From Bacteroidales bacterium (lineage in GTDB: Bacteria; Bacteroidota; Bacteroidia; Bacteroidales; WCHB1-69): a DNA stretch of 64,000 bases. Positions 42,788 through 53,723 of this stretch are shown piece after piece (the stretch's first letter is position 1; each line of letters begins with the position of its first letter). Position numbers and translations under genes: made by a program. The notes under the pieces are model-generated. The model was not told the origin of the DNA. It ran no database searches and was given only the letters and a program-made list of their open reading frames with translations. The DNA is taken from assembly GCA_016285145.1 (NCBI GenBank), contig JAEEQE010000005.1, forward strand, positions 1-64,000, written 5' to 3'.

Positions 42788-43888
42788 CTAGTCCCCAAAC
42801 GCCATGCCCACGCTGCGGGCGGTGTGGATAAGGAAGTCCTTGTCGGGGCACACTAAATGTGGGCTTTTCAGGGCGTCGGCAAGGGGCACGCTGGAAATGT
42901 TGGGGTGGCGGTACACGACCAGCTGGCCGTACTGTTTGTCCTTGACCAGCTCGAAGGCCTTGACGCCGAACTCGGTGGCCAGGATGCGGTCGTAGGCCAC
43001 GGGCGTGCCGCCGCGCTGCAGGTGTCCGAGCACGGTCACGCGCACGTCATGCTCGATGCCGAGTTCCAGCAACTCCTGCCGTAGCACTTCGCCCACGCCG
43101 CCTAATTTGATGTGGCGGTCGCCGACAGCGGTGGGTGCCTGGCCGGTGACTTTCCCGTCGGTTTTCTTAGCCCCTTCGGCGATGACGATGTTGCAGAAGC
43201 CCATGCCGTTTTGGTAGCGTGTTTCGATTTTTTCTGCAATTTTACGGGGATCGTAGGGTATTTCGGGGATGATGCACACCTCTGCGCCGCCGGCGATGGC
43301 CGTGTGAAGGGCAATCCAGCCGGCATCGCGGCCCATCACCTCCATGATGAAGACGCGGTTGTGGCTCTCCGCCGTGGTCACTAATTTGTCGAAGGCTTCA
43401 GTGGCAATCTGCACGGCCGTCTGGAAACCGAAGGTGAAGTCGGTGGAGGAGAGGTCGTTGTCGATGGTCTTGGGCACGCCCACCACGGGGATGCCCATCT
43501 CCATGAGCTTCAGGGAGATGCCCTGCGAGCCGTCGCCGCCGATGTTGATGATGGCGTCAAAGCCCATCTCTTCCAAGCGGCGTTTCATCAGCTGCGAGCG
43601 GTCTTCCATCACCCACGAGCCGTCGGGCTGCTTCACGGGGAAGTGGAAGGGACCGCCCTTGTTGGTGGTCTTGATGATGGTGCCGCCCTTGACGTGCAGT
43701 CCGGAGACCATCTGCTCCGTGAGGCGTACAATTTCGATGTTGTCTTTCAGAATCCCGTTGAAGGATTCTATGCAACCGTATATCTCCCAGTCGGTTTCCT
43801 GTGCGGACCGTTTCACGATGCCGCGGATCACGGCGTTGAGGCCGGGGCAGTCGCCGCCGCCTGTCGCCACGAGAATCTTATGTGCCAT
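42788..43888 (-). CDS. pfkA: 6-phosphofructokinase
   Basis: 366 residues from the ATG at 43888 (MAHKILVATGGGDCPGLNAV); the frame is open far upstream but those codons run through the promoter region. It phosphorylates fructose-6-phosphate in glycolysis. The nucleotide site has NIGGDGSQGISLKL, with Gly at the position that favours ATP, while PKTIDNDLSSTDFTFGF carries the Lys seen in pyrophosphate-dependent and group III enzymes. The phosphoryl donor is therefore uncertain. IMEVMGRDAGWIALHTAIA is the substrate-binding block. Confidence 0.95.
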   Translation of the reverse strand: MAHKILVATGGGDCPGLNAVIRGIVKRSAQETDWEIYGCIESFNGILKDNIEIVRLTEQMVSGLHVKGGTIIKTTNKGGPFHFPVKQPDGSWVMEDRSQLMKRRLEEMGFDAIINIGGDGSQGISLKLMEMGIPVVGVPKTIDNDLSSTDFTFGFQTAVQIATEAFDKLVTTAESHNRVFIMEVMGRDAGWIALHTAIAGGAEVCIIPEIPYDPRKIAEKIETRYQNGMGFCNIVIAEGAKKTDGKVTGQAPTAVGDRHIKLGGVGEVLRQELLELGIEHDVRVTVLGHLQRGGTPVAYDRILATEFGVKAFELVKDKQYGQLVVYRHPNISSVPLADALKSPHLVCPDKDFLIHTARSVGMAFGD

Positions 43889-43911
43889 AGTCAGTTCTTG
43901 TTTGAAAGCGG

Positions 43912-43919
43912 CAAAGATA
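43912..43919 (-). promoter_or_regulatory. -7 box (TATCTTTG) for pfkA
   Basis: TATCTTTGC on the minus strand, 23 bases upstream of the pfkA ATG, divergent from the duplicated promoter at 43973-44042. Confidence 0.7.
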
Positions 43920-43972
43920 CGAATAAAACGAACACGGAGGGAGACTCTTTTTTTTGATAATAAAGCTATACG

Positions 43973-44042
43973 ATTTGAAAAAAATGTATCTTTGTCGCAT
44001 AAAAGATATTTGAAAAAAATGTATCTTTGTCGCATAAAAGAT
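43973..44042 (+). promoter_or_regulatory. Perfect 35-bp tandem duplication carrying two identical promoters
   Basis: Two exact 35-base copies (43973-44007 and 44008-44042), each containing TATCTTTG (43987-43994 and 44022-44029). Both boxes face the gene starting at 44050, the first of the RHS operon. Start sites would fall near 44001 and 44036. Confidence 0.85.
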
Positions 44043-44049
44043 AATTGCC

Positions 44050-44496
44050 ATGATGAAAAAATACGTTCTTCTTATTATTCAAATTTTTGTTATGGGTGCA
44101 ATATCCGCTCAATCGCCGCTTGCCCGCACGTATGATTACGATGCGTCGGGAAATCGGTTGTTGCGCAAGACTGTTACGATGCGGAGTGCAGTGGCTGAAC
44201 CCGATACAATGGAAATTACAGACAGTCGGAAAAATGCGGATTGTTTCATTGACCAAATCGGGCGTTGGGATGTTCATGTGTTTCCTAATCCCACATCGGG
44301 TTTGTTGACTTTGTCGTTTGACAAACCGGTGAAAAAGGGTTTGTATCAAGTCTTTTCCCTGTCGGGGAAGATTCTCATGAAAGGGAATTTGGCACAAAAA
44401 ACACAGTTGGACATGTCTGCAATGCCTTCTGGCACATACCTTCTTGAAATCAAAATAGATAATCTTGATGAAACTTGGAAAATCATAAAACAATAA
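44050..44496 (+). CDS. Small secreted YD-motif protein with T9SS sorting domain
   Basis: 148 residues: a signal peptide (MMKKYVLLIIQIFVMGAISA), a single YD-repeat-like motif just after it (RTYDYDASGNRLLRKTVT), a short polar linker, and a type A T9SS sorting domain (VHVFPNPTSGLLTLSFDK ... SGTYLLEIKIDN) filling the second half. The gene ends 3 bases before the giant RHS gene, so the two are almost certainly co-transcribed and probably co-translated. The RHS protein has a toxin-like tip instead of a sorting domain, which makes this small protein a candidate export or anchoring partner. That role is inference; I know of no characterised example. Confidence 0.83.
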   Translation: MMKKYVLLIIQIFVMGAISAQSPLARTYDYDASGNRLLRKTVTMRSAVAEPDTMEITDSRKNADCFIDQIGRWDVHVFPNPTSGLLTLSFDKPVKKGLYQVFSLSGKILMKGNLAQKTQLDMSAMPSGTYLLEIKIDNLDETWKIIKQ

Positions 44497-44499
44497 ACT

Positions 44500-47400
44500 A
44501 TGAAAACAATATCAAAGATGAATAATATTTTCACACTTCGTCTGCCACTATGGCTTCTCTTATTATTTGCCATACTGCTGTCGGGGAAAATGAAAGGTCA
44601 GAACACAAACCTCCCTGTGGGGGTGATTCCGGGAAATGCAGGAGTGTCGGCTTTGGGCGCAGCCACATACACCATTCCTATAGAGGTGATTCCGGGAACA
44701 GCGGGTGTTCAGCCAAACCTTAACGTGATGTTCAGTAGCGTGACGGGGTTCGGTGCTTTGGGTACACAGTGCGATTTGGGTGGGATTTCTGTCATCAGCC
44801 GAGTGGGGAAAAACCAGTTCCTTGACCATTCGTCATCAGCTGTTTCACTTGACTACAAGGACCGTTTTTCTCTTGACGGTAATCGTCTGGTATGTATGGA
44901 CCCAACGCAGTACGGTCTTGACGGAACCACCTATTACCCTGAATTTGAAGACTATTCTTACGTTGTTTCGTATTCTGGATATGGGAATGGACCTGATTTT
45001 TTCAAGGTTTATTCTGATAACGGGACGATTGCGGAATATGGAAAACATGAAAACTCCAAGCAGATTATAGGAAATATTGTGCTTAACTGGTATGTAAACA
45101 AAATCACCGACCGGAACGGCAACTATATGACCTACACATACGGTCATAGTGGCAATGAGATTTGGATAGAACACATAGACTATACGGGAAACAGTAATGC
45201 GGGATTGTCTCCATACGCCCGCGTTTCATTTGTTTATGACACCACCTCTCACATAGGATCCCGTTTTGTTTACGGATATGAGATTCGCCAGACCCGGCTG
45301 CTTTCTTCAATACGCGTGGAATACTACAACGGAGGTGCGTATGAATTGGTGCGCCGGTATGATTTTACGTACAGCTACGAATCACCAAAAAAATTGGAGA
45401 ACATCCATCTTACGGCTTCTGATGACCAGACCATGCTGAATCCCGTGTCGTTACAATGGGAAACCCAGGGTGTGGGAGTGCCGGATACGACACATATATA
45501 TACTTCGGCTTTCCATAATGGGTCGAAGCATTTGTCCATTGACTTCAACAAGGACGGTCTTGTTGACATAGTGGAATATGATGCCGACCATTGTGTATTC
45601 TTTCAAAATACGGGGAATACGTTCCAATATGTGCATGTGGAAACTGCCGATGTTTCGAATGAATGGCAGATACTCCTATGTGTTGCCGCTGATGTGGACG
45701 GGGATGGCTATAGTGAGCTTCTTATTGTTTACCAAAAACCTACCGCATCAAAAATCCACGTGTTTGAAGTTTCGTATAATGGGTCTTCATTTCACACGGA
45801 GGAGTTTTCAAGCGAGATTCAGGCCAGTGCCGTACATAAAGATAATGTTTTTGCTGGTGATTTTTTCGGCAACGACCGCCATCAGATGTTGCTTCATTTT
45901 GATACAAGAGTCATGTTGCTGGGAGATTACAAAGGTTCTTTTAGAACCATCTATATCAACACGTTGCAGAATTCCCTTGTTGAAATTCTGGATTTTGACG
46001 GTGATCGTCAGATGGAGTTCATGGTATTGAACAGGGATGTGAATATATTCAAATGCGATCCGGATAATAATACAATCAACCGAATACGACGGCTGAATCA
46101 TTTGCCGGATAAATTCATTGGAACGGGCGATTTCAACGGGGACGGCATATCCGATTTGCTTTTAAGGACAATAGACAACCCGGATCCGGGGTTGTCTTAT
46201 TGGGTTTCTTTTGGTACGGGCCACGATTTCACTTCTGCCGTTGCTCATGACACGTACCTTTACCATACGGCAGGGGATAAGACTCCCCCTCGCGTGGCGG
46301 ACATAAACGGCGACGGATACGATGACATTATGACTTTTATATTGAGTAATGCAGGATTAAAGGTCCAATATCATTTGGGAAGAGGTTATTATAACGACAC
46401 ATTACATTTTTTACGTTGCAATCACATCCCACATCCTTGTTTAGTTACCAGTTCAGAAATGACAGGTGGAGACTATGACATCCTTATCGGTGATTTCGAC
46501 AACAACCATCATCTTGACATTTTGGTTTTCAAGGATATTGGCACATCTATTCCGGGAGTCATGCTGTACGATTTCAACGCAGAAAAGCAGCCTCCTCAAA
46601 TGGTGCAGCTGAACAAGGGTGACGGTTCCTTCACACGATGGCACTTCAGGGAAATCCGTGGCATGATATACCGATATGCATCTTTCATAAGCCAAATCCC
46701 GCTGTTTTTCAATGTGGTGGATACACTTACAAGTTCCGGTGAAACCCCTGTAGACCTTCATCGGACTTGTTATGATTTTGCAGTGCCCTATTACACACCT
46801 CGCAGGCGGCAGGTGCTGGGCTTCGGCAGCACGGTGGTCCGTGATATGACACATCATACCACCGACAGCATGACGATGACCAATGTGAAGGCTGAAAACA
46901 ACGTCTGGCAGGACGTTCTTCTTCCCGTAAGCCGGAAAAAGTATGTCGGGAACAGGCTTCTGCAAACGACGGAATATGGGGCCGAATGTCATCTGCTGCC
47001 CCTTAACCGAAGGATACTTATCACACCTCTCTCTGTCACCACCAACCATCTGGAAGGGACCGTCTCCACTGTTCGGAACACGTATTATGTGAGCGGTCGC
47101 TTGCGAAGCAGCACTTCGGAGGTCCGGGATGTGGCTGCCGCAGAGCCTCTGACATTGGATTCCGTACGGTATGCGTACCTTTCCATTACAATCCCTAACG
47201 GCATCAGCATCACTTTGCCGGACTCTTCTGAAACAATTTCGCGTATGGCCGGCAGTCCTCGGCAGATTGTCGGGACAAAGCGCTATACGTACAATTATCT
47301 GGGACAGCCCGTAACCTGCAACACAATGTCTGATGGCCAAACCGTCATCAAACAGTTTGGAGGGTATAATGCTTACGGCCTTGCCACTGAGGAGACCTTG

Positions 47401-50400
47401 TCGGCTGACAGTTGCCAAAGTCGTATGACCAGCCTTTCGTTCGACCCCACCGGACGCTTCGTGGTGCAGGCCACTAATCCTCTTAACCATTCAACATCCA
47501 GTGTATATGATCCCAAAACCGGCCTCGTGCTGGCGAAGACAGATGCGAACGGGCTGACGACCACCTACTCATACGATTCCTGGGGACGGATGGACACGGT
47601 TCGCTATCCAGACGGCACCATGACCACATACGCCTGCCGATGGTACACGCAGTCATCCATACCCAAGGCCTTATATTATACAGTGGCACAGACCACTGGA
47701 TCGGCCCGCGAGTACCACTATTACGATCTGCTCGGACGCAATATCCGAACCCGGAAAATCGACTCTTACACCGACACTCGCTATAACACCAAGGGTTTGG
47801 TTGACAGTGTATCAGCCCCTCATGCCGTGGGCGTGGCGGATGTTGACAAACTTTGGCATACCTATCAGTACGACAGCCTTGGCAGACTCACCTCTGAACA
47901 CGGACCCTACACGGATCTTTCCTACAGCTATTCGGCCCGTACTGTGAGCATAACGGACAACCTGAGGCAAACCACCACAGTGAAAACCTCCGATGCCGCC
48001 GGCAGACCGCTATTAGCATCGGACCCGGGTGGAACCATTCTTTACCAATACGCCTTGGACACCTGTAGCGGACATACGGTACTGCGCACGGATGTGACTA
48101 CGGTTGGCAATACCACTTCTGCATGGACTGACCAGCAAGGGAACCGGTTGAAATTGGACGACCCGGATGCCGGTGTCCTGACATACCAATATAACACGTA
48201 CGGGGAACTGGTGCGGCAGACTGACGCACGAGGCTTTTCCACCCTTTTCACATACGACAAGCTGGGGCGTGCCACACAGAAAACGTACACCGATACGACA
48301 GGGACCCTCCGGACTGTAAATTTCACCTACGACCAGTTTTCCAGCAACAACCGTGGGCGTGGAAAGCCTTCCACCATACAGATAAACGACACCCTTGCCG
48401 AACAGTATGTCTATGATCAATTGGGTCGATTGAAGCAAACCACCCGCTATGTGGATGGGACCGCCCACACGGAAATTTGTACTTATAATGCCTTTGGACA
48501 ACTTGACACATTTGCATATCCCGACGGATTTGCCGTGAAATACGGATACGAAGAAAGCGGAAGACTGAATGCCATAACCCTGTGCGGAAGCGAAGTCCAG
48601 TTGGTAAAGGTGCCACGATACAATCTGTATGGCCATGCCACCCGCATTGAATACGGCAACGGACTTGCCACGGATTGGGAATATGACAGCAGAGGTATAC
48701 TTACCCGCATCAACACAGGAAATATAATAGACTATGAAGTAATACCCGACACTCTGCCAGGGCCTCCCGACCCTCCCATTGATCCCCCTGTAATAGGACC
48801 ACTCTCTATACACCCGTTATATATGTCGGGTATGGATGACGTTTATAGCATTGACAGCACTGTGCAAAACTTCCGCTACACATACGACGGTATAGGGCGG
48901 CTTGTGCAGCGCACAGGCAGATATGGACAGTACGAAAACTTCCAGTATGACAACCTTGACCGGCTGACCTCTTTTACGCAAGGTTCGGCAAACGGCATTT
49001 CCCAGACTTTCTCCACTGTATATAATACACAGGGCAACATTACGGGCAGCACCCTGGCGGGCTCCTACCAGTATGACAGTGAAAAGCCGCACGCGGTGAC
49101 ATCCGTGATGCCCTCCACCAACTTTCCGGAGGCAATTTCTTCCTCACAATGCGAAACGGAGTACAATTTCTTGAGCCAGCCTTCACGAATTGCGGAGGAA
49201 AATGTGGAGATTCTGTTGGAGTACGGAGCTGACAACCAACGTGCGAAGACGGTATTCAAAAACAGTGGGCATATTGCTCGCACCCGCTACCATATCAGTG
49301 CCAATTATGAGAGGGAAACGGATTTGAGGGGCGTGGAATGGAACTACCATTACATCTACGGGCCCAACGGCCTCGCCGCCCTCTGTGTGCGGCGTGATGG
49401 GGTGGACAGTCTCTATTACGTACACCCCGACCGTTTGGGCAGTTACACGCACATCACCAATGCAGGCAAGCAGGTAGTGCGGGCGTTACACTTCGACCCA
49501 TGGGGCAACGTGAAAGCCGACACCAACTGGACGGTGTTTGCCACGAACGCCCCTTCTACGCTGATACGCTCTTTTCGCTTCGACCGCGGCTTTACCGGCC
49601 ACGAGCACTACGCCGACTTGAAGATTATAAACATGAACGGCCGCCTGTACGACCCTGTGATTGCCCGTTTCTTTTCGCCTGACAACTTTGTGCAGCTGCC
49701 CGACTTCACTCAGAGCTATAACCGGTATTCGTACTGCCTGAACAACCCGTTGCAATATGTGGACCCGAGCGGAGAGAAGTTGAAATGGTGGCAGAATCTG
49801 CTGATTGGTTTAGGATTAGATTTCTTGACAGGAGGGGCTGTCTCTACGGCAGCATCTTTATTAGGAACCTCCGTGGCCTTCTCAAGTACCAGTATTGGTT
49901 ATGAGATGCAGAAATTAGTCTCACCTGTTGCTTTCAAGTTTAGTTACGGTTTTGGTTCCCGCAACCATATCGGGTTTGATGCTTCGTTTGGGCCTGGCGG
50001 CATATTGGATTACCGCTGGCACGGTGGTGTTAGTTACTATTTTGGCGATAACGCCTACGGCAAATATAACGGATGGGAATTCCGCGACGGGGCTGAAATA
50101 CGATGGTATGGTGTGGCAAGTATTTCAGGTACACGATTCAGTGCAGGGGAATATTCACAGATTACGAATAAAATAACCATAGGAAATGCTCGTAAAAACA
50201 TTTCGTATGAAAACGACCAGTTGTTCGGCATTGGCAAAGTACTGGGAATATATAACGCTGATGGAGGGGATCGCTGGCGTTCGGCCGCTGTACAATTTCG
50301 TTACGGACTTTTCAATGCCACTCTCAATCTCTTCACTGGAGACCCAGGATTAGTTGAAAGGGATCGCAGTATTACTAATTATTTCCATGAATACTATAGT

Positions 50401-50622
50401 AGTGAAGGAGCTCTGGATGCCAATCAACGAGCTGGAGTCCTTAGTTTTGGATTTGGTTCATTTCGTTTAGGACGTAATTCTGAAATCATACGACATATTT
50501 TTCAAAATGAGTTAGCACACTCTGCCATTATGAAAGATGGACCTGCATGGTTCAAGTTTTTAGACATCGAACCAACTTGGTTTTGGTATTTCGGTAGTTT
50601 CAATGGCAATACATTATGGTAG
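44500..50622 (+). CDS. Giant RHS-repeat protein (SpvB/VCBS/YD/RHS core) with polymorphic toxin tip
   Basis: 2040 residues. Signal peptide (about 1-34); SpvB-like N-terminal domain (about 38-330; SALGAATYTIPIEVIPGTAG); five or six VCBS/FG-GAP calcium-binding-type motifs (DFNKDGLVDI, DVDGDGYSEL, DFNGDGISDL, DINGDGYDDI) between about 345 and 680; a TcB-like middle part (PYYTPRRRQVLGFGSTVV); YD repeats (about 950-1600; YDSLGRLTSE, YDQLGRLKQT); and the RHS core (about 1618-1758) ending NPLQYVDPSGE, where the tip begins. This shell normally encapsulates its own C-terminus. The 280-residue tip (FKFSYGFGSRNHIGFDASFG, YRWHGGVSYYFG) looks like the predicted polymorphic toxin type 23 family; that assignment is from memory and moderate. 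An ATG at 44518 is an alternative start. Confidence 0.9.
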   Translation: MKTISKMNNIFTLRLPLWLLLLFAILLSGKMKGQNTNLPVGVIPGNAGVSALGAATYTIPIEVIPGTAGVQPNLNVMFSSVTGFGALGTQCDLGGISVISRVGKNQFLDHSSSAVSLDYKDRFSLDGNRLVCMDPTQYGLDGTTYYPEFEDYSYVVSYSGYGNGPDFFKVYSDNGTIAEYGKHENSKQIIGNIVLNWYVNKITDRNGNYMTYTYGHSGNEIWIEHIDYTGNSNAGLSPYARVSFVYDTTSHIGSRFVYGYEIRQTRLLSSIRVEYYNGGAYELVRRYDFTYSYESPKKLENIHLTASDDQTMLNPVSLQWETQGVGVPDTTHIYTSAFHNGSKHLSIDFNKDGLVDIVEYDADHCVFFQNTGNTFQYVHVETADVSNEWQILLCVAADVDGDGYSELLIVYQKPTASKIHVFEVSYNGSSFHTEEFSSEIQASAVHKDNVFAGDFFGNDRHQMLLHFDTRVMLLGDYKGSFRTIYINTLQNSLVEILDFDGDRQMEFMVLNRDVNIFKCDPDNNTINRIRRLNHLPDKFIGTGDFNGDGISDLLLRTIDNPDPGLSYWVSFGTGHDFTSAVAHDTYLYHTAGDKTPPRVADINGDGYDDIMTFILSNAGLKVQYHLGRGYYNDTLHFLRCNHIPHPCLVTSSEMTGGDYDILIGDFDNNHHLDILVFKDIGTSIPGVMLYDFNAEKQPPQMVQLNKGDGSFTRWHFREIRGMIYRYASFISQIPLFFNVVDTLTSSGETPVDLHRTCYDFAVPYYTPRRRQVLGFGSTVVRDMTHHTTDSMTMTNVKAENNVWQDVLLPVSRKKYVGNRLLQTTEYGAECHLLPLNRRILITPLSVTTNHLEGTVSTVRNTYYVSGRLRSSTSEVRDVAAAEPLTLDSVRYAYLSITIPNGISITLPDSSETISRMAGSPRQIVGTKRYTYNYLGQPVTCNTMSDGQTVIKQFGGYNAYGLATEETLSADSCQSRMTSLSFDPTGRFVVQATNPLNHSTSSVYDPKTGLVLAKTDANGLTTTYSYDSWGRMDTVRYPDGTMTTYACRWYTQSSIPKALYYTVAQTTGSAREYHYYDLLGRNIRTRKIDSYTDTRYNTKGLVDSVSAPHAVGVADVDKLWHTYQYDSLGRLTSEHGPYTDLSYSYSARTVSITDNLRQTTTVKTSDAAGRPLLASDPGGTILYQYALDTCSGHTVLRTDVTTVGNTTSAWTDQQGNRLKLDDPDAGVLTYQYNTYGELVRQTDARGFSTLFTYDKLGRATQKTYTDTTGTLRTVNFTYDQFSSNNRGRGKPSTIQINDTLAEQYVYDQLGRLKQTTRYVDGTAHTEICTYNAFGQLDTFAYPDGFAVKYGYEESGRLNAITLCGSEVQLVKVPRYNLYGHATRIEYGNGLATDWEYDSRGILTRINTGNIIDYEVIPDTLPGPPDPPIDPPVIGPLSIHPLYMSGMDDVYSIDSTVQNFRYTYDGIGRLVQRTGRYGQYENFQYDNLDRLTSFTQGSANGISQTFSTVYNTQGNITGSTLAGSYQYDSEKPHAVTSVMPSTNFPEAISSSQCETEYNFLSQPSRIAEENVEILLEYGADNQRAKTVFKNSGHIARTRYHISANYERETDLRGVEWNYHYIYGPNGLAALCVRRDGVDSLYYVHPDRLGSYTHITNAGKQVVRALHFDPWGNVKADTNWTVFATNAPSTLIRSFRFDRGFTGHEHYADLKIINMNGRLYDPVIARFFSPDNFVQLPDFTQSYNRYSYCLNNPLQYVDPSGEKLKWWQNLLIGLGLDFLTGGAVSTAASLLGTSVAFSSTSIGYEMQKLVSPVAFKFSYGFGSRNHIGFDASFGPGGILDYRWHGGVSYYFGDNAYGKYNGWEFRDGAEIRWYGVASISGTRFSAGEYSQITNKITIGNARKNISYENDQLFGIGKVLGIYNADGGDRWRSAAVQFRYGLFNATLNLFTGDPGLVERDRSITNYFHEYYSSEGALDANQRAGVLSFGFGSFRLGRNSEIIRHIFQNELAHSAIMKDGPAWFKFLDIEPTWFWYFGSFNGNTLW

Positions 50623-50642
50623 AATCGTATAATAATGCTATT

Positions 50643-51194
50643 ATGAATAGACATATTACATATATAATGATATTTATCAATTTGCTGTTTTTCAGTTGTA
50701 CAAAACCAACACACCAATTTTCCAAAGAATCATATACGGGAGGAGAACTGCGGACAGATGGTTTTTATTACACTAATCTTTATTATCATGATCGTAACAA
50801 TGTCCCTTCTGATGGATTCTTTCACCTGATTTTTTTATACAGAGATGGTTTATGGTTTGAAGGTGTTTCTTTTTTCGAAGCCAATGATATTAACATGATT
50901 TCGCAAGAGTGCATCGAGCATGTCATATCTGCGTATCCTTGGCGTTACGATAATATTAACGAATGGGGTGTCTATAAGGTCCTTAAAGATCGATTATATT
51001 GGACAATGTGTGAGTATCGAGGAATGGGAGACTGGTTTACTTCCTTGGATTCAGCTTACATTCTAAATGATACCACTTTTGTAAAAGTAAATTATACTTC
51101 CCAGAGTAATGGCCATCAGCCCTACGAAATCACCTATCATTTCCACCAATTCTCCTACAAACCTGACAGCAGCGTTGCATACCAGTGGTGGTAG
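50643..51194 (+). CDS. Lipoprotein directly after the RHS toxin, candidate immunity protein
   Basis: 183 residues from the ATG at 50643, which begins a lipoprotein signal MNRHITYIMIFINLLFFSC with lipobox LFFSC; an ATG at 50616 overlaps the RHS stop and is less likely. The mature protein is rich in Tyr, Trp and Asp with no known motif. It lies 20 bases behind the toxin tip, the standard place for the cognate immunity gene in polymorphic toxin loci, and is more AT-rich than the upstream part of the RHS gene. A periplasmic lipoprotein would fit a toxin acting in the envelope. Function inferred only from position. Confidence 0.65.
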   Translation: MNRHITYIMIFINLLFFSCTKPTHQFSKESYTGGELRTDGFYYTNLYYHDRNNVPSDGFFHLIFLYRDGLWFEGVSFFEANDINMISQECIEHVISAYPWRYDNINEWGVYKVLKDRLYWTMCEYRGMGDWFTSLDSAYILNDTTFVKVNYTSQSNGHQPYEITYHFHQFSYKPDSSVAYQWW

Positions 51195-51281
51195 GTATAA
51201 TGTCCCCAAAATTTCCGACAGCAAGTTAACCCCCAAAAAGTATAATGCTCCCCAATTTCATACCGTAAACCAAATAAATTG

Positions 51282-51289
51282 TACTTTCG
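51282..51289 (+). promoter_or_regulatory. Possible -7 box (TACTTTCG) before the orphan RHS tip
   Basis: TACTTTCG differs from TAnnTTTG at one position and lies 11 bases before the ATG at 51301. Weak support. Confidence 0.3.
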
Positions 51290-51300
51290 CAGCAGAAAAG

Positions 51301-52332
51301 ATGATGACCTTGACCCGAACATACAGTCCTGTGGAAATATCCGTGCGATACGCGGAGACACAAGGTTTTACCGGCCACGAGCACTACGCCGACTTGAAGA
51401 TTATAAATATGAACGGGAGGCTCTACGACCCCGTGATTGCGCGTTTCTTCTCGCCCGACAATTTTGTTCAGGCACCGGATTTCACGCAGAGTTTCAACCG
51501 ATATTCGTATTGTTTGAACAACCCGCTGCAGTACGTGGATCCGAGCGGGGAGAATGTCTTCGATGCATTCCTATATGGCTTTTGCTGCATCCTCACTTTA
51601 CCCGCCCGTATAATAACGGAGGGAGTCAGTTGGGTAAACGACCATATCAACGGTGACGTGAAGCCTGACGGCTACTTCCATGCCGACTATCTTTTCAATT
51701 GCGATCCTCCGCACGAAATAGACTATCAAAATGTCGTAAACTTGCAAAATCCGTACACAGCCACCTATTATGAACCCGACATGATGACCGACGCCGACGG
51801 CACCACCTACCGCACCGAGTACTATTGGGCGGCGGTGGGGTCGGGAGGAGAACATTGCTACAAGGTGGGCAAGGGCTTCTGGAAGAAAATCTTCACCCCC
51901 TACAAGGAAACGGGCAGGTGGTACACGAGGATGGTGCCGGTAGAGACAAAAGACGAAAAACTCCCCAATGATAATTCAAATGTCACTACTGTTGATGTTG
52001 GAATGGTCACTAATTTCATAGGGGTATCATCTTCTATTTATTCTGAAGGCAATTCAGGTTTGAATTATTATGTTCCTTATGGAATTTCCGTTTTGGCTTA
52101 TGGCACACAAATGTTTGATATTGGAAGGGACGCATACAAGAATTGGCCTCCTTCCTTTGAAAATGCGTATGATTTCGCGACTGCGAACATTGGCTTTTGG
52201 GGAGGCCCGGAGGGTGCAATAGTAGGATTTACGCTAGATTTTCTTAAACGTGGTGTAAAATGGACTGCCAATTATTTATCTGAATTTGAAATGGAATTAA
52301 GAAGAATAAACTCACCTCAAACATACTATTAA
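51301..52332 (+). CDS. Orphan RHS core fragment with a different C-terminal tip
   Basis: About 343 residues from the ATG at 51301 (the frame is open from 51109, but the earlier part overlaps the lipoprotein gene and has no meaning). After about 20 residues it enters the last part of the RHS core, nearly identical to the large gene (GFTGHEHYADLKIINMNGRL ... NPLQYVDPSGE), then a different 270-residue tip beginning NVFDAFLYGFCC. The tip matches no family I recognise; its last third is clearly more AT-rich than its middle, suggesting a composite origin. This is the expected form of a silent or displaced tip cassette. It may be unexpressed, expressed alone, or recombine onto the main gene. Confidence 0.75.
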   Translation: MMTLTRTYSPVEISVRYAETQGFTGHEHYADLKIINMNGRLYDPVIARFFSPDNFVQAPDFTQSFNRYSYCLNNPLQYVDPSGENVFDAFLYGFCCILTLPARIITEGVSWVNDHINGDVKPDGYFHADYLFNCDPPHEIDYQNVVNLQNPYTATYYEPDMMTDADGTTYRTEYYWAAVGSGGEHCYKVGKGFWKKIFTPYKETGRWYTRMVPVETKDEKLPNDNSNVTTVDVGMVTNFIGVSSSIYSEGNSGLNYYVPYGISVLAYGTQMFDIGRDAYKNWPPSFENAYDFATANIGFWGGPEGAIVGFTLDFLKRGVKWTANYLSEFEMELRRINSPQTYY

Positions 52333-52333
52333 T

Positions 52334-52852
52334 ATGAAGTCTTCCTTATCTTATAGAAATCTTTTTTTTGAGGGAATTATTCCCCTGTTGTCTGTGGTGG
52401 TATGGATACCGGTGTTTTATTGGATTTTGAATTATCAATGGACAAATCCACTATGGGAAAATATTTTATTTCTTCTTCTAATTATAGATATGATATTTCT
52501 TCTTTCCATTTATCCCATTGGTGTTTTGGTTAAATATCTCCTATACGATTACGATACGTTATTGGAGTACGATGTTTGTAACGAAAAGATTAGTTATGAC
52601 AGGGAAGATATTAAGGTCGATTTTCAATTATCAGACATAGAATCTTTTGTCCGAATTCGCCCTCTATTAAGATCAGCGATAGGCTCTATATATGAAATAA
52701 AACTAAAATCAGGTTGTGTTATTACAGTGACAGATTTGCTTTCTGTAATGCAACAAATAGAAAAACATTTTGAAATAATCGATACATATTACGAATGTGT
52801 GCTGTTTCGTAAATTTTACAACGTTAGACCCAAAAATGATGATTCAAAATAG
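52334..52852 (+). CDS. Membrane protein after the orphan tip, candidate immunity protein
   Basis: A 172-residue AT-rich gene starting 1 base after the orphan tip stop. Two hydrophobic helices (about residues 12-32 and 41-68) precede a cytoplasmic domain of about 100 residues that could be a PH-like beta fold (YDVCNEKISYDREDIKVDFQ). It has no recognised family. The tight coupling to the orphan tip and the odd composition suggest it is the immunity protein of that tip and moved with it. Position-based inference. Confidence 0.6.
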   Translation: MKSSLSYRNLFFEGIIPLLSVVVWIPVFYWILNYQWTNPLWENILFLLLIIDMIFLLSIYPIGVLVKYLLYDYDTLLEYDVCNEKISYDREDIKVDFQLSDIESFVRIRPLLRSAIGSIYEIKLKSGCVITVTDLLSVMQQIEKHFEIIDTYYECVLFRKFYNVRPKNDDSK

Positions 52853-52856
52853 TGCA

Positions 52857-53010
52857 CATTATTACTACGTCTATGGCGCCAACGGCCTCGCCGCCCTCTG
52901 CGTGCGCCGCAACGGGGTGGACAGTCTCTATTACGTACATCCCGACCGGTTGGGCAGCTACACGCACCTCACCGATGCCGACAAGCAGGTGGTGCGGGCG
53001 TTGCCTGTGA
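52857..53010 (+). pseudogene. Truncated RHS core remnant
   Basis: This stretch encodes HYYYVYGANGLAALCVRRNG ... SLYYVHPDRLGSYTH ... KQVVRAL, matching residues about 1616-1664 of the giant RHS protein (DNA 49345-49490) with high identity and then stopping abruptly. It corresponds to the core just upstream of the part kept in the orphan at 51364. It has no start, no tip and a short unrelated tail, so it is a recombination scar. Confidence 0.85.
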
Positions 53011-53070
53011 TGAGAAGTTTACCTTTTTCAGCACCCTCATTTCCGAAGCGGATGGTATGAATTTTTTTTG

Positions 53071-53078
53071 TACTTTTG
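53071..53078 (+). promoter_or_regulatory. -7 box (TACTTTTG) for rplY
   Basis: TACTTTTGCCG after a T-run, about 52 bases upstream of the ATG at 53130. It marks the right edge of the RHS island. Confidence 0.65.
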
Positions 53079-53129
53079 CCGCCGTTTTTAAAATACCCCA
53101 AATATTAATCATTTAAAAATCAAAAAGTA

Positions 53130-53723
53130 ATGAAATCAGTATCTATTAGCGGTTCCCTCCGTGGGAACGTAGGGAAAAAAGATGCAAAAAACCAACGTAA
53201 CCAGGGCATGATCCCTTGCGTGCTGTACGGCGGAAAAGAACAGAAACTCTTCGTTGTGGAAGAGAGACAGTTCCAAAAACTGCTCTATGTCCCCGAAGTG
53301 CAGTATGTTGATCTCAACATCGACGGCTTCGCCACCCGCGCCATCGTGCAAGAAACGCAGTTCCACCCGATTACGGATAAACTCCTGCATGTTGACTTCC
53401 TTGAAATCGTGGACGGCAAGCCCATCACCATCGAGCTTCCTTTCATGTTGAAGGGCACATCCCCGGGTGTCCTCAAAGGCGGTTCCCTCCAGAAGAGAGT
53501 GCGCAAACTCAAAGTGCGCGGCCTGCTTGAGAACATCCCCGAGAATATCGTGACCGACATCTCCAACATGGAAATCAACGATATGATCAAGATTGGAGAC
53601 ATCCATATCGACAATCTGGAAATCGTTGACAATGCCAACAAGGTCATCGTCTCTGTCAACCCGACCCGTAACGCCGTGGTTGAAGCTGCTGAGGGTGAGG
53701 CTGAAGAGGGCGCTGAGGCCTAA
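53130..53723 (+). CDS. rplY: Ribosomal protein L25/general stress protein Ctc
   Basis: 197 residues: the long (Ctc/TL5) form of the 5S rRNA-binding protein. SISGSLRGNVGKKDAKNQRN and IPCVLYGGKEQKLFVVEE form the N-terminal 5S-binding domain; VDFLEIVDGKPITIELPFML and the C-terminal beta domain complete it, followed by an acidic Glu/Ala tail. It has its own promoter and is followed 52 bases later by ppiD. Confidence 0.95.
   Translation: MKSVSISGSLRGNVGKKDAKNQRNQGMIPCVLYGGKEQKLFVVEERQFQKLLYVPEVQYVDLNIDGFATRAIVQETQFHPITDKLLHVDFLEIVDGKPITIELPFMLKGTSPGVLKGGSLQKRVRKLKVRGLLENIPENIVTDISNMEINDMIKIGDIHIDNLEIVDNANKVIVSVNPTRNAVVEAAEGEAEEGAEA

What the first reader, a model, noticed from the sequence alone, without database searches (positions are those of the whole stretch)
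43973..53060. RHS polymorphic-toxin island with main gene, two candidate immunity genes, orphan tip and core remnant
Seen: a 2040-residue RHS protein with variable tip after DPSGE, a lipoprotein gene 20 bases later, a second tip with only the last part of the core, a membrane protein 1 base after that, and a further core fragment, all bounded by ordinary housekeeping genes. Known: RHS/CDI-type loci keep displaced tip-immunity pairs and swap them by recombination in the core. Inference: this is an active tip-exchange locus in a Bacteroidota background.
Basis: partly seen in the sequence, partly recalled or inferred. Interest (0 to 1): 0.75.

Follow-up and report, generated by a model that had tools for sequence, protein, structure and literature searches.

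The report
Mobile Rhs toxin island, swapped tips
A Bacteroidales bacterium carries a large toxin gene whose killing tip and matching protection gene look as if they are traded between species; the locus type is known, but comparison with relatives suggests that this tip resembles an enzyme that cuts outer-membrane lipid and that its neighbour lipoprotein is the antidote.

Summary
Between pfkA and rplY lie a T9SS-tagged small protein, a 2040-aa SpvB/FG-GAP/RHS protein, a lipoprotein gene, an orphan core+tip, a membrane-protein gene and a core scrap. Relatives show that the island is acquired and remodelled. The site is empty in sister G028, a scar in G018, and holds a fragment of another RHS family in G021. 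G028 has its own RHS element at FISUMP|gcvT, empty in G018. The RHS DNA is 79.5-82% identical to G028's (four housekeeping genes 93-97%), with a ~98% tract across core and early tip. The orphan segment is 95.6% identical to G027, whose rplY and ppiD are 71-78%.

New here: tip1 is Ntox23. As a family, Ntox23 shares ordered motifs with LpxR, an outer-membrane lipid A deacylase. 16 of 29 other Ntox23 loci, including 12 of 12 evaluable RHS-linked ones, are followed by one lipoprotein family; 0 of 10 standalone ones are. I infer a lipid-attacking tip with a lipoprotein immunity. No structure could be predicted; toxicity is untested. Known kind of locus, newly proposed tip mechanism and immunity family.

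The parts
43973..44042 (+). Exact tandem duplication of a 35-bp unit with a promoter-like TATCTTTG box, just upstream of the island's first gene
   Evidence: the repeat finder D3; the promoter reading is recalled Bacteroidota consensus, not tested
44050..44496 (+). 148-aa small protein: signal-like N-terminus, one YD-repeat-like stretch (by eye), T9SS type A sorting domain
   Evidence: PF18962 2.3e-11, TIGR04183 3.9e-14; homologue upstream of RHS in 6 of 8 relatives with a (near) full RHS gene
44500..50622 (+). Main RHS polymorphic toxin: signal-like N-terminus, SpvB, FG-GAP, RHS repeats, RHS core, tip1
   Evidence: SpvB 3.9e-8, FG-GAP_3 9.7e-14, RHS_repeat 9.5e-23; Rhs_assc_core 5.7e-16
49777..50619 (+). 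tip1 = Ntox23 domain (281 aa), LpxR-like motifs END 145-147, DRWRS 165-169, QN..H 243-248
   Evidence: PF15528 56.9 bits against cut-off 26.2; motifs
50616..51194 (+). imm1, candidate cognate immunity lipoprotein of tip1 (alternative start 50640)
   Evidence: lipobox FFSC; its family is adjacent to 16 of 29 other Ntox23 loci examined; no Pfam/NCBIfam match
51301..52332 (+). Orphan cassette: last part of RHS core (51364-51554) + tip2 (51553-52329)
   Evidence: TIGR03696 4.6e-16; core piece 97.4% DNA identity to G015
52334..52852 (+). imm2, candidate membrane immunity of tip2 (one strong and one borderline hydrophobic segment, then a soluble part)
   Evidence: hydropathy; homologues 98% G027, 48% G001, 43% G005
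52857..53003 (+). Core remnant (upstream part of the RHS core), truncated at the right edge of the island
42788..44035 (-). pfkA (ORF as called; conserved start about 43885), left flank
   Evidence: PF00365 3.4e-94
53130..53723 (+). rplY (ribosomal L25), right flank
   Evidence: PF01386 2.1e-23

Best explanation
A horizontally acquired SpvB-RHS polymorphic-toxin island sits in the pfkA-rplY gap of a Bacteroidales bacterium. The RHS body (with a signal-like N-terminus, probably surface-delivered with help from T9SS and the small sorting-domain partner) carries an Ntox23 tip. I propose that the tip works like LpxR: delivered to a neighbour, it attacks lipid in the outer membrane, and the co-encoded lipoprotein (imm1) blocks it at the same membrane in kin. 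Downstream, tip2-imm2 is a displaced cassette without an evident secretion signal, flanked by core pieces that allow homologous recombination, so a tip and its immunity can be swapped in one event. Shown: anatomy, horizontal origin, mosaic core and tip, site occupancy differences, Ntox23-lipoprotein linkage, motif kinship of the Ntox23 family with LpxR. Inferred: delivery, lipid target, immunity function, tip2 function.
For: Domain anatomy. Site A (pfkA-rplY): of 10 relatives with both genes in the fetched stretch, 8 have 102-206 nt and no match to island proteins, G018 has a scar, G021 a fragment of another RHS family. G028's own element is at FISUMP|gcvT, empty in G018, with a 39-bp flanking duplication in G028. 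G000 C36 ends in the same FISUMP gene + tip2-like stub + imm2 start. RHS DNA 79.5% (44022-49662) and 82.0% (49635-50621) to G028 against 93-97% for pfkA, rplY, ppiD, sir2; tract 49060-50093 about 98% with 50-nt windows of 44-88% beside it. Orphan segment 95.6% to G027 and orphan core 97.4% to G015, with rplY and ppiD at 70-78%. Ntox23-lipoprotein linkage in 16 of 29 other loci, 0 of the 10 standalone ones. Ntox23-LpxR profile score 47.4, against at most 19.0 in 100 column shuffles and 14.3-14.9 reversed; shared ordered motifs. SprA present.
Against: LpxR kinship is by profile over about 42-57 columns only; tip1 itself does not hit PF09982, only 2 of 28 family members do (best 0.021); a profile of the two closest tips alone does not match LpxR (0.4% probability) and the four small Ntox23 proteins barely do (3%); no PDB sequence hit; no structure could be predicted. 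No barrel family other than LpxR was used as a control. No expression, toxicity or immunity data. The RHS gene itself has no T9SS domain. In G028 a 242-aa gene separates tip1 from the imm1-like gene, so the cognate partner could be that gene there. One standalone Ntox23 gene (L163) also has an adjacent lipobox gene, though it does not match imm1. All genomes are assemblies in many contigs; G028's element is split over two contigs.
Confidence: 0.62

Rival explanations
1. Same island and same tip exchange, but Ntox23 is not a lipid enzyme: it is a pore-forming or otherwise unrelated all-beta toxin that merely shares a loop motif with LpxR.
For: Alignment to LpxR is confined to the END..DR.RT region; the window pair alone shows no kinship; no PDB match; Zhang 2012 lists Ntox23 only as all-beta with ND, DxxR, H.
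Against: D147, D165, Q243 and N244 are invariant and R168 and H248 nearly so across 28 diverse members, and the motifs recur in the same order and similar spacing in LpxR, including Q..xH, which suits catalysis better than a pore.
Confidence: 0.35
2. The island is an old, vertically inherited RHS locus in decay, and the orphan pieces are inert debris.
For: Truncated core scrap; several relatives hold only stubs of tip1; G018 has a scar.
Against: Main gene is open throughout; 79.5-82% to the sister's gene against 93-97% background; 8 of 10 relatives have the empty site; orphan segment 95-97% identical to distant species.
Confidence: 0.08
3. The RHS protein serves another role (surface adhesin or wall protein, or action on host cells), and the tip and lipoprotein form a surface complex rather than a toxin and its immunity.
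For: PF15528 also includes about 300-aa standalone proteins without an imm1-type neighbour, and three short non-RHS proteins with one; no toxicity data.
Against: Tip polymorphism behind one body, displaced tip-immunity cassettes, retained immunity genes next to tip stubs: the hallmark pattern of polymorphic toxins.
Confidence: 0.12
4. The island moves as a dedicated mobile element with its own recombinase.
For: Different sites in sisters, clean empty sites, 39-bp flanking direct repeat in G028.
Against: No integrase or transposase domain among the six island proteins scanned; no comparable flanking repeat seen by eye at the window's site; homologous exchange of flanking DNA explains the pattern.
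Confidence: 0.1

Closest known systems
RHS-type polymorphic toxin systems with displaced toxin-immunity cassettes (Zhang et al. 2012, PMC3482391; passages seen)
   Same: Constant 5' body, variable C-terminal tip, downstream immunity, solo cassettes, proposed exchange by recombination; Ntox23 is listed there in Bacteroidetes with RHS and TcdB/TcaC
   Different: There Ntox23 has no assigned immunity ('-') and no mechanism; only one lipoprotein immunity (Imm65) is described. That SpvB corresponds to TcdB/TcaC is recalled
LpxR, outer-membrane lipid A deacylase (PF09982; PMC6260217 passages seen)
   Same: END, DR[YF]xT and Q..xH motifs in the same order; LpxR residues D10, T34 and H122 were studied at the active site there
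   Different: Ntox23 has more sequence before END (over 140 residues in tip1), is a tip of an RHS protein here, and the window tip does not match PF09982
TANFOR polymorphic toxins of Bacteroidetes (PMC7073777, outline and section 9 read)
   Same: Polymorphic toxins, most with a signal peptide, near T9SS sorting-domain proteins, with immunity downstream
   Different: Different body (TANFOR, not SpvB-RHS); there the T9SS substrates carry SprB repeats, here a 148-aa protein
Exchangeable Rhs effector-immunity pairs with orphan immunities in Serratia (PMC10539506, search listing and start of abstract only)
   Same: Swappable Rhs effectors and orphan immunity proteins
   Different: T6SS-delivered NADase tips; here no T6SS was tested and the tip is Ntox23

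Membership tests
RHS polymorphic toxin | Trafficking N-terminus, RHS repeats and RHS core | tested here: met
RHS polymorphic toxin | Tip differs between relatives with the same body | tested here: met
   4 tip types among 6 same-genus main genes with a readable tip, own included
RHS polymorphic toxin | Immunity gene directly downstream and displaced cassettes | tested here: met
   by position and family linkage; protection itself untested
RHS polymorphic toxin | Tip is toxic and neighbour protects | not testable with these tools
   needs bench work
Ntox23 (PF15528) | Score over curated cut-off; ND, DxxR, H residues | tested here: met
   56.9 against 26.2 bits; N146 D147, D165-R168, H248
LpxR (PF09982) | Match to the family model | tested here: not met
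   no match for tip1; 2 of 28 Ntox23 members weakly, best 0.021. So not filed as LpxR; only 'works like'
LpxR (PF09982) | Catalytic motifs in order | tested here: met
   profile controls
LpxR (PF09982) | 12-stranded outer-membrane barrel, lipid A deacylation | not testable with these tools
   structure tool off; activity needs bench work; strand number recalled
T9SS substrate | C-terminal sorting domain and T9SS in genome | tested here: met
   met for the 148-aa protein only, SprA in genome; the RHS gene has no such domain
Polyimmunity locus | Immunity genes uninterrupted by toxin cassettes | tested here: not met
   toxin and immunity genes alternate; definition from PMC3482391 passage
Integrative mobile element | Own integrase or transposase | tested here: not met
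   none in the six island proteins scanned

The most novel reading that the evidence does not exclude
Ntox23 tips across Bacteroidota are LpxR-like outer-membrane enzymes used as contact weapons against the lipid A or other lipids of competitors, each paired with a member of a new lipoprotein immunity family that works at the outer membrane; and the SpvB-RHS island carrying them swaps between promoter sites (pfkA|rplY, FISUMP|gcvT) without its own recombinase.
Probability: 0.35. Interest if true: 0.78.

Novelty: new variant of a known kind. Interest (0 to 1): 0.55.

Why it matters
Ntox23 has been a named but unexplained toxin since 2012, with no assigned immunity in that survey. A testable enzyme mechanism and a lipoprotein antidote family would turn a 'function unknown' domain found in 29 of 393 order-level genomes (the count includes standalone Ntox23 proteins) into an experiment. 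The three sister species, with the element at different sites, also give a natural view of how such weapons are gained, swapped and lost in Bacteroidales.

Tried and rejected
Tip2 behind a full RHS gene: not found. Phage origin of 49400-53200: no match in the phage collection. Tip2 relatives in viral contigs: none. Ntox23 alignment A2 had no stretch conserved enough for a scan. PDB sequences with the Ntox23 profile: none. Literature: Ntox23 in 3 papers, 'polymorphic toxin type 23' in 0, LpxR with polymorphic toxin in 0; these cover only the held open-access library. Considered and rejected: that the 39-bp duplication in G028 proves transposition (single-crossover integration or homologous exchange would do the same). 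The window-only pair of tips does not show the LpxR kinship, so that claim rests on the whole family. One search ran with an empty database and was repeated. A first count of downstream genes used an immunity model that included the window's imm1; one search leaves it out. The split of Ntox23 loci into RHS-linked, short and standalone was made, so one search is not a blind test. One search's listing was cut in the middle; one search's listing leaves out three own-genome loci.
Full report
WHAT IS THERE. The window is G000:C38:1-64000 of a 2.73-Mb assembly. From pfkA (minus strand) to rplY (plus strand) the order is: an exact tandem 35-bp repeat (43973-44042); a 148-aa protein with a T9SS type A sorting domain (44050-44496; TIGR04183 3.9e-14); the 2040-aa RHS protein with SpvB, FG-GAP, RHS repeats and RHS core; a lipoprotein gene (imm1); an orphan core+tip (tip2); a small membrane-protein gene (imm2); and a truncated core scrap. 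The core copies are significant (4.8e-39 and 1.6e-22). The imm1 frame has an ATG that overlaps the end of the tip gene by 7 nt, the same overlap as in five distant Ntox23 loci.

THE ISLAND IS NOT ANCESTRAL AT THIS SITE. I fetched 20 of the rplY neighbourhoods found in 33 of 40 genus genomes; 10 contain pfkA within the stretch, the other 10 do not (some end with the contig) and were set aside. Of those 10 relatives, 8 have 102-206 nt between the genes and no match to the island's proteins (G028, G004, G001, G037, G038, G005, G024, and G029 with rplY inverted). G018 has 554 nt that include a match to the first 35 codons of the sorting-domain gene (74%) and a piece that reads like the start of a 237-aa gene of G015's array (by eye). 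G021 has 1.9 kb with an RHS core and tip start that does not match the window's RHS, in the same orientation. So this gap seems to have received RHS DNA more than once.

A SECOND SITE. In G028 the RHS element lies between a FISUMP-domain gene and gcvT, split over two contigs. In G018 the same two genes are adjacent with nothing between them. A 39-bp stretch that holds the presumed gcvT promoter (motif recalled) is present once in G018 and on both sides of the element in G028 (97.4% alike). In the window's genome, contig C36 ends just after the same FISUMP gene with a tip2-like stub and the first 27 codons of imm2 (133 bp at 99.2%), so this site there seems to hold an orphan remnant. gcvT was not found in G000, so the right side is unknown.

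RECOMBINATION. pfkA, rplY, ppiD and sir2 of G000 are 93-97% identical in DNA to G028, and the three of them present to G018 likewise. G018 and G028 are 94-99% alike in those three, so the shared occupancy of site A by G000 and G018 does not follow the closest pfkA. The island's DNA is 79.5% to G028's over 44022-49662 and 82.0% over 49635-50621. It is a mosaic: 47650-47900 at 100%, about 48450-48800 at 94-100%, and 49060-50093 at about 98% (20 differences), between 50-nt windows that mostly lie at 44-90%. The last tract spans core and early tip and ends inside the tip. The orphan is of other origin: its core piece is 97.4% identical to G015 (the main core there is 80%), and 52044-52999 (end of tip2, imm2, core scrap) is 95.6% to G027:C49, while rplY and ppiD of G015 and G027 are 70-78%. 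In G027 only the last 96 residues of tip2 remain, with imm2 open. Six same-genus main RHS genes with a readable tip carry four tip types: Ntox23 in G000 and G028, one type each in G014 and G002, and a pair 50% alike in G005 and G027. Tip1 matches in 6 of 104 family genomes: own, G028 in full, and stubs in G015, G016 (two), G004 and G030; G016 and G004 keep imm1 relatives beside the stubs. Tip2 was not found behind a full RHS gene.

WHAT TIP1 MAY DO. Tip1 matches Ntox23 (PF15528), which Zhang 2012 lists as all-beta, conserved ND, DxxR and H, Bacteroidetes, no immunity assigned (passage). In 393 order genomes, 29 have PF15528 (36 matches, of which 30 came as loci, one of them the window). In the 29 other loci, 16 have, at -13 to +11 nt after the Ntox23 stop, a gene matching an imm1 model built from seven relatives without the window (E < 1e-3, each E for one sequence; weakest 0.00079). 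Of these 16, 12 were flagged RHS-linked, three are short proteins without RHS (L174, L175, L177), L172 is a fragment not classed there. The 10 standalone proteins of about 300 aa have none: seven have some downstream frame (best E 0.011), three have none, two of these ending 74 and 182 nt after the stop; one of the seven (L163) is an adjacent lipobox gene that does not match (0.38). Three loci could not be counted: L158 ends at the stop, L173 has no such gene within 150 nt (a weak relative lies about 480 nt on), L176 is broken. This makes imm1 the likely immunity family; Zhang 2012 names a single lipoprotein immunity, Imm65, as exceptional (passage).

Two of 28 Ntox23 members hit LpxR weakly (best 0.021). 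A profile comparison of 28 Ntox23 sequences (window, L097 and 26 of the 29 other loci; L150 and L172 dropped because the script found no matching frame, L176 left out as broken) with 22 LpxR proteins of the order (of 25 matches) scores 53.5 (92%), 47.4 (88%) after trimming; 100 column shuffles reach 19.0 at most, reversed profiles 14.3 and 14.9, imm1 12.4. Subsets weaken it: RHS-linked 57%, standalone 48%, four small ones 3%, the window pair 0.4%. LpxR shows [DE]NDxF..TDRYYT and, mostly about 100 residues on, Q..xH; Ntox23 shows ENDxFG..DRxR[ST] and, 74-97 residues on, QN..(x)H (my motif pattern found 16 of 22 LpxR, two of them with a different second hit, and 26 of 28 Ntox23, of which L164 has a probable mis-hit of the last motif; four Ntox23 proteins read EDD instead of END). 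Across the 28, D147, D165, Q243 and N244 are invariant and R168 and H248 nearly so; N146 is not in those lists. In LpxR, D10, T34 and H122 are among the residues studied at the active site (PMC6260217 passages). 23 of 28 Ntox23 proteins end in an aromatic residue, as outer-membrane barrels often do (recalled), though the overlap with the immunity start codon may also fix the final LW. I therefore infer an outer-membrane lipid enzyme and an outer-membrane lipoprotein antidote; neither is shown.

TIP2, DELIVERY. Tip2 has no family match above cut-off beyond the RHS core. imm2 has one strong and one borderline hydrophobic segment, so a toxin acting at a membrane is a guess. The RHS protein has no T9SS domain, but SprA is encoded and the sorting-domain protein lies upstream of RHS in 6 of 8 relatives with a (near) full gene; a similar neighbourhood was reported for TANFOR toxins (PMC7073777 section 9). 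How it helps delivery is unknown.

VERDICT. What is new is the comparative evidence of horizontal remodelling here, the lipoprotein immunity family proposed for Ntox23, and the LpxR-like reading of the tip, which is the part most worth testing and most at risk.

Noticed in passing
43973-44042: Exact 35-bp tandem duplication with a promoter-like box upstream of the island; the homologous place in G018 has no such duplication.
   Followed up: partly
L119 (G000:C36:10450-10618): Contig end with a FISUMP gene, tip2-like stub and the first 27 codons of imm2: probably a second, orphan immunity site in the same genome.
   Followed up: partly
L106:3868-4389: G021 carries a fragment of a different RHS family in the same pfkA-rplY gap and orientation, suggesting an insertion hotspot.
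   Followed up: partly
L125:11715-12440: In G028 a 242-aa signal-peptide-like protein without Pfam match, also in G015 as 240 aa, lies between tip1 and the imm1-like gene: accessory or second immunity?
   Followed up: no
L150, L153-L155, L159, L160, L162-L165: PF15528 also covers about 300-aa standalone proteins with no imm1-type neighbour; they may be cellular relatives from which the tip domain came.
   Followed up: partly
51131-51193: The last 20 codons of imm1 are 87-92% identical in DNA to those of relatives in G028, G015 and one G016 copy whose proteins are 38-40% alike overall, as if the 3' end were a recombination anchor.
   Followed up: no
L004-L008 (G000 C19, C35, C24, C39 contig ends): Four contigs of the own genome have, near an end, cores of another RHS family (30-36% alike), so RHS repeats probably break this assembly.
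   Followed up: no
L039 (G002:C20): Two orphan cassettes in one array share the first 76 tip residues (83%) but differ after that: a tip-internal junction.
   Followed up: no
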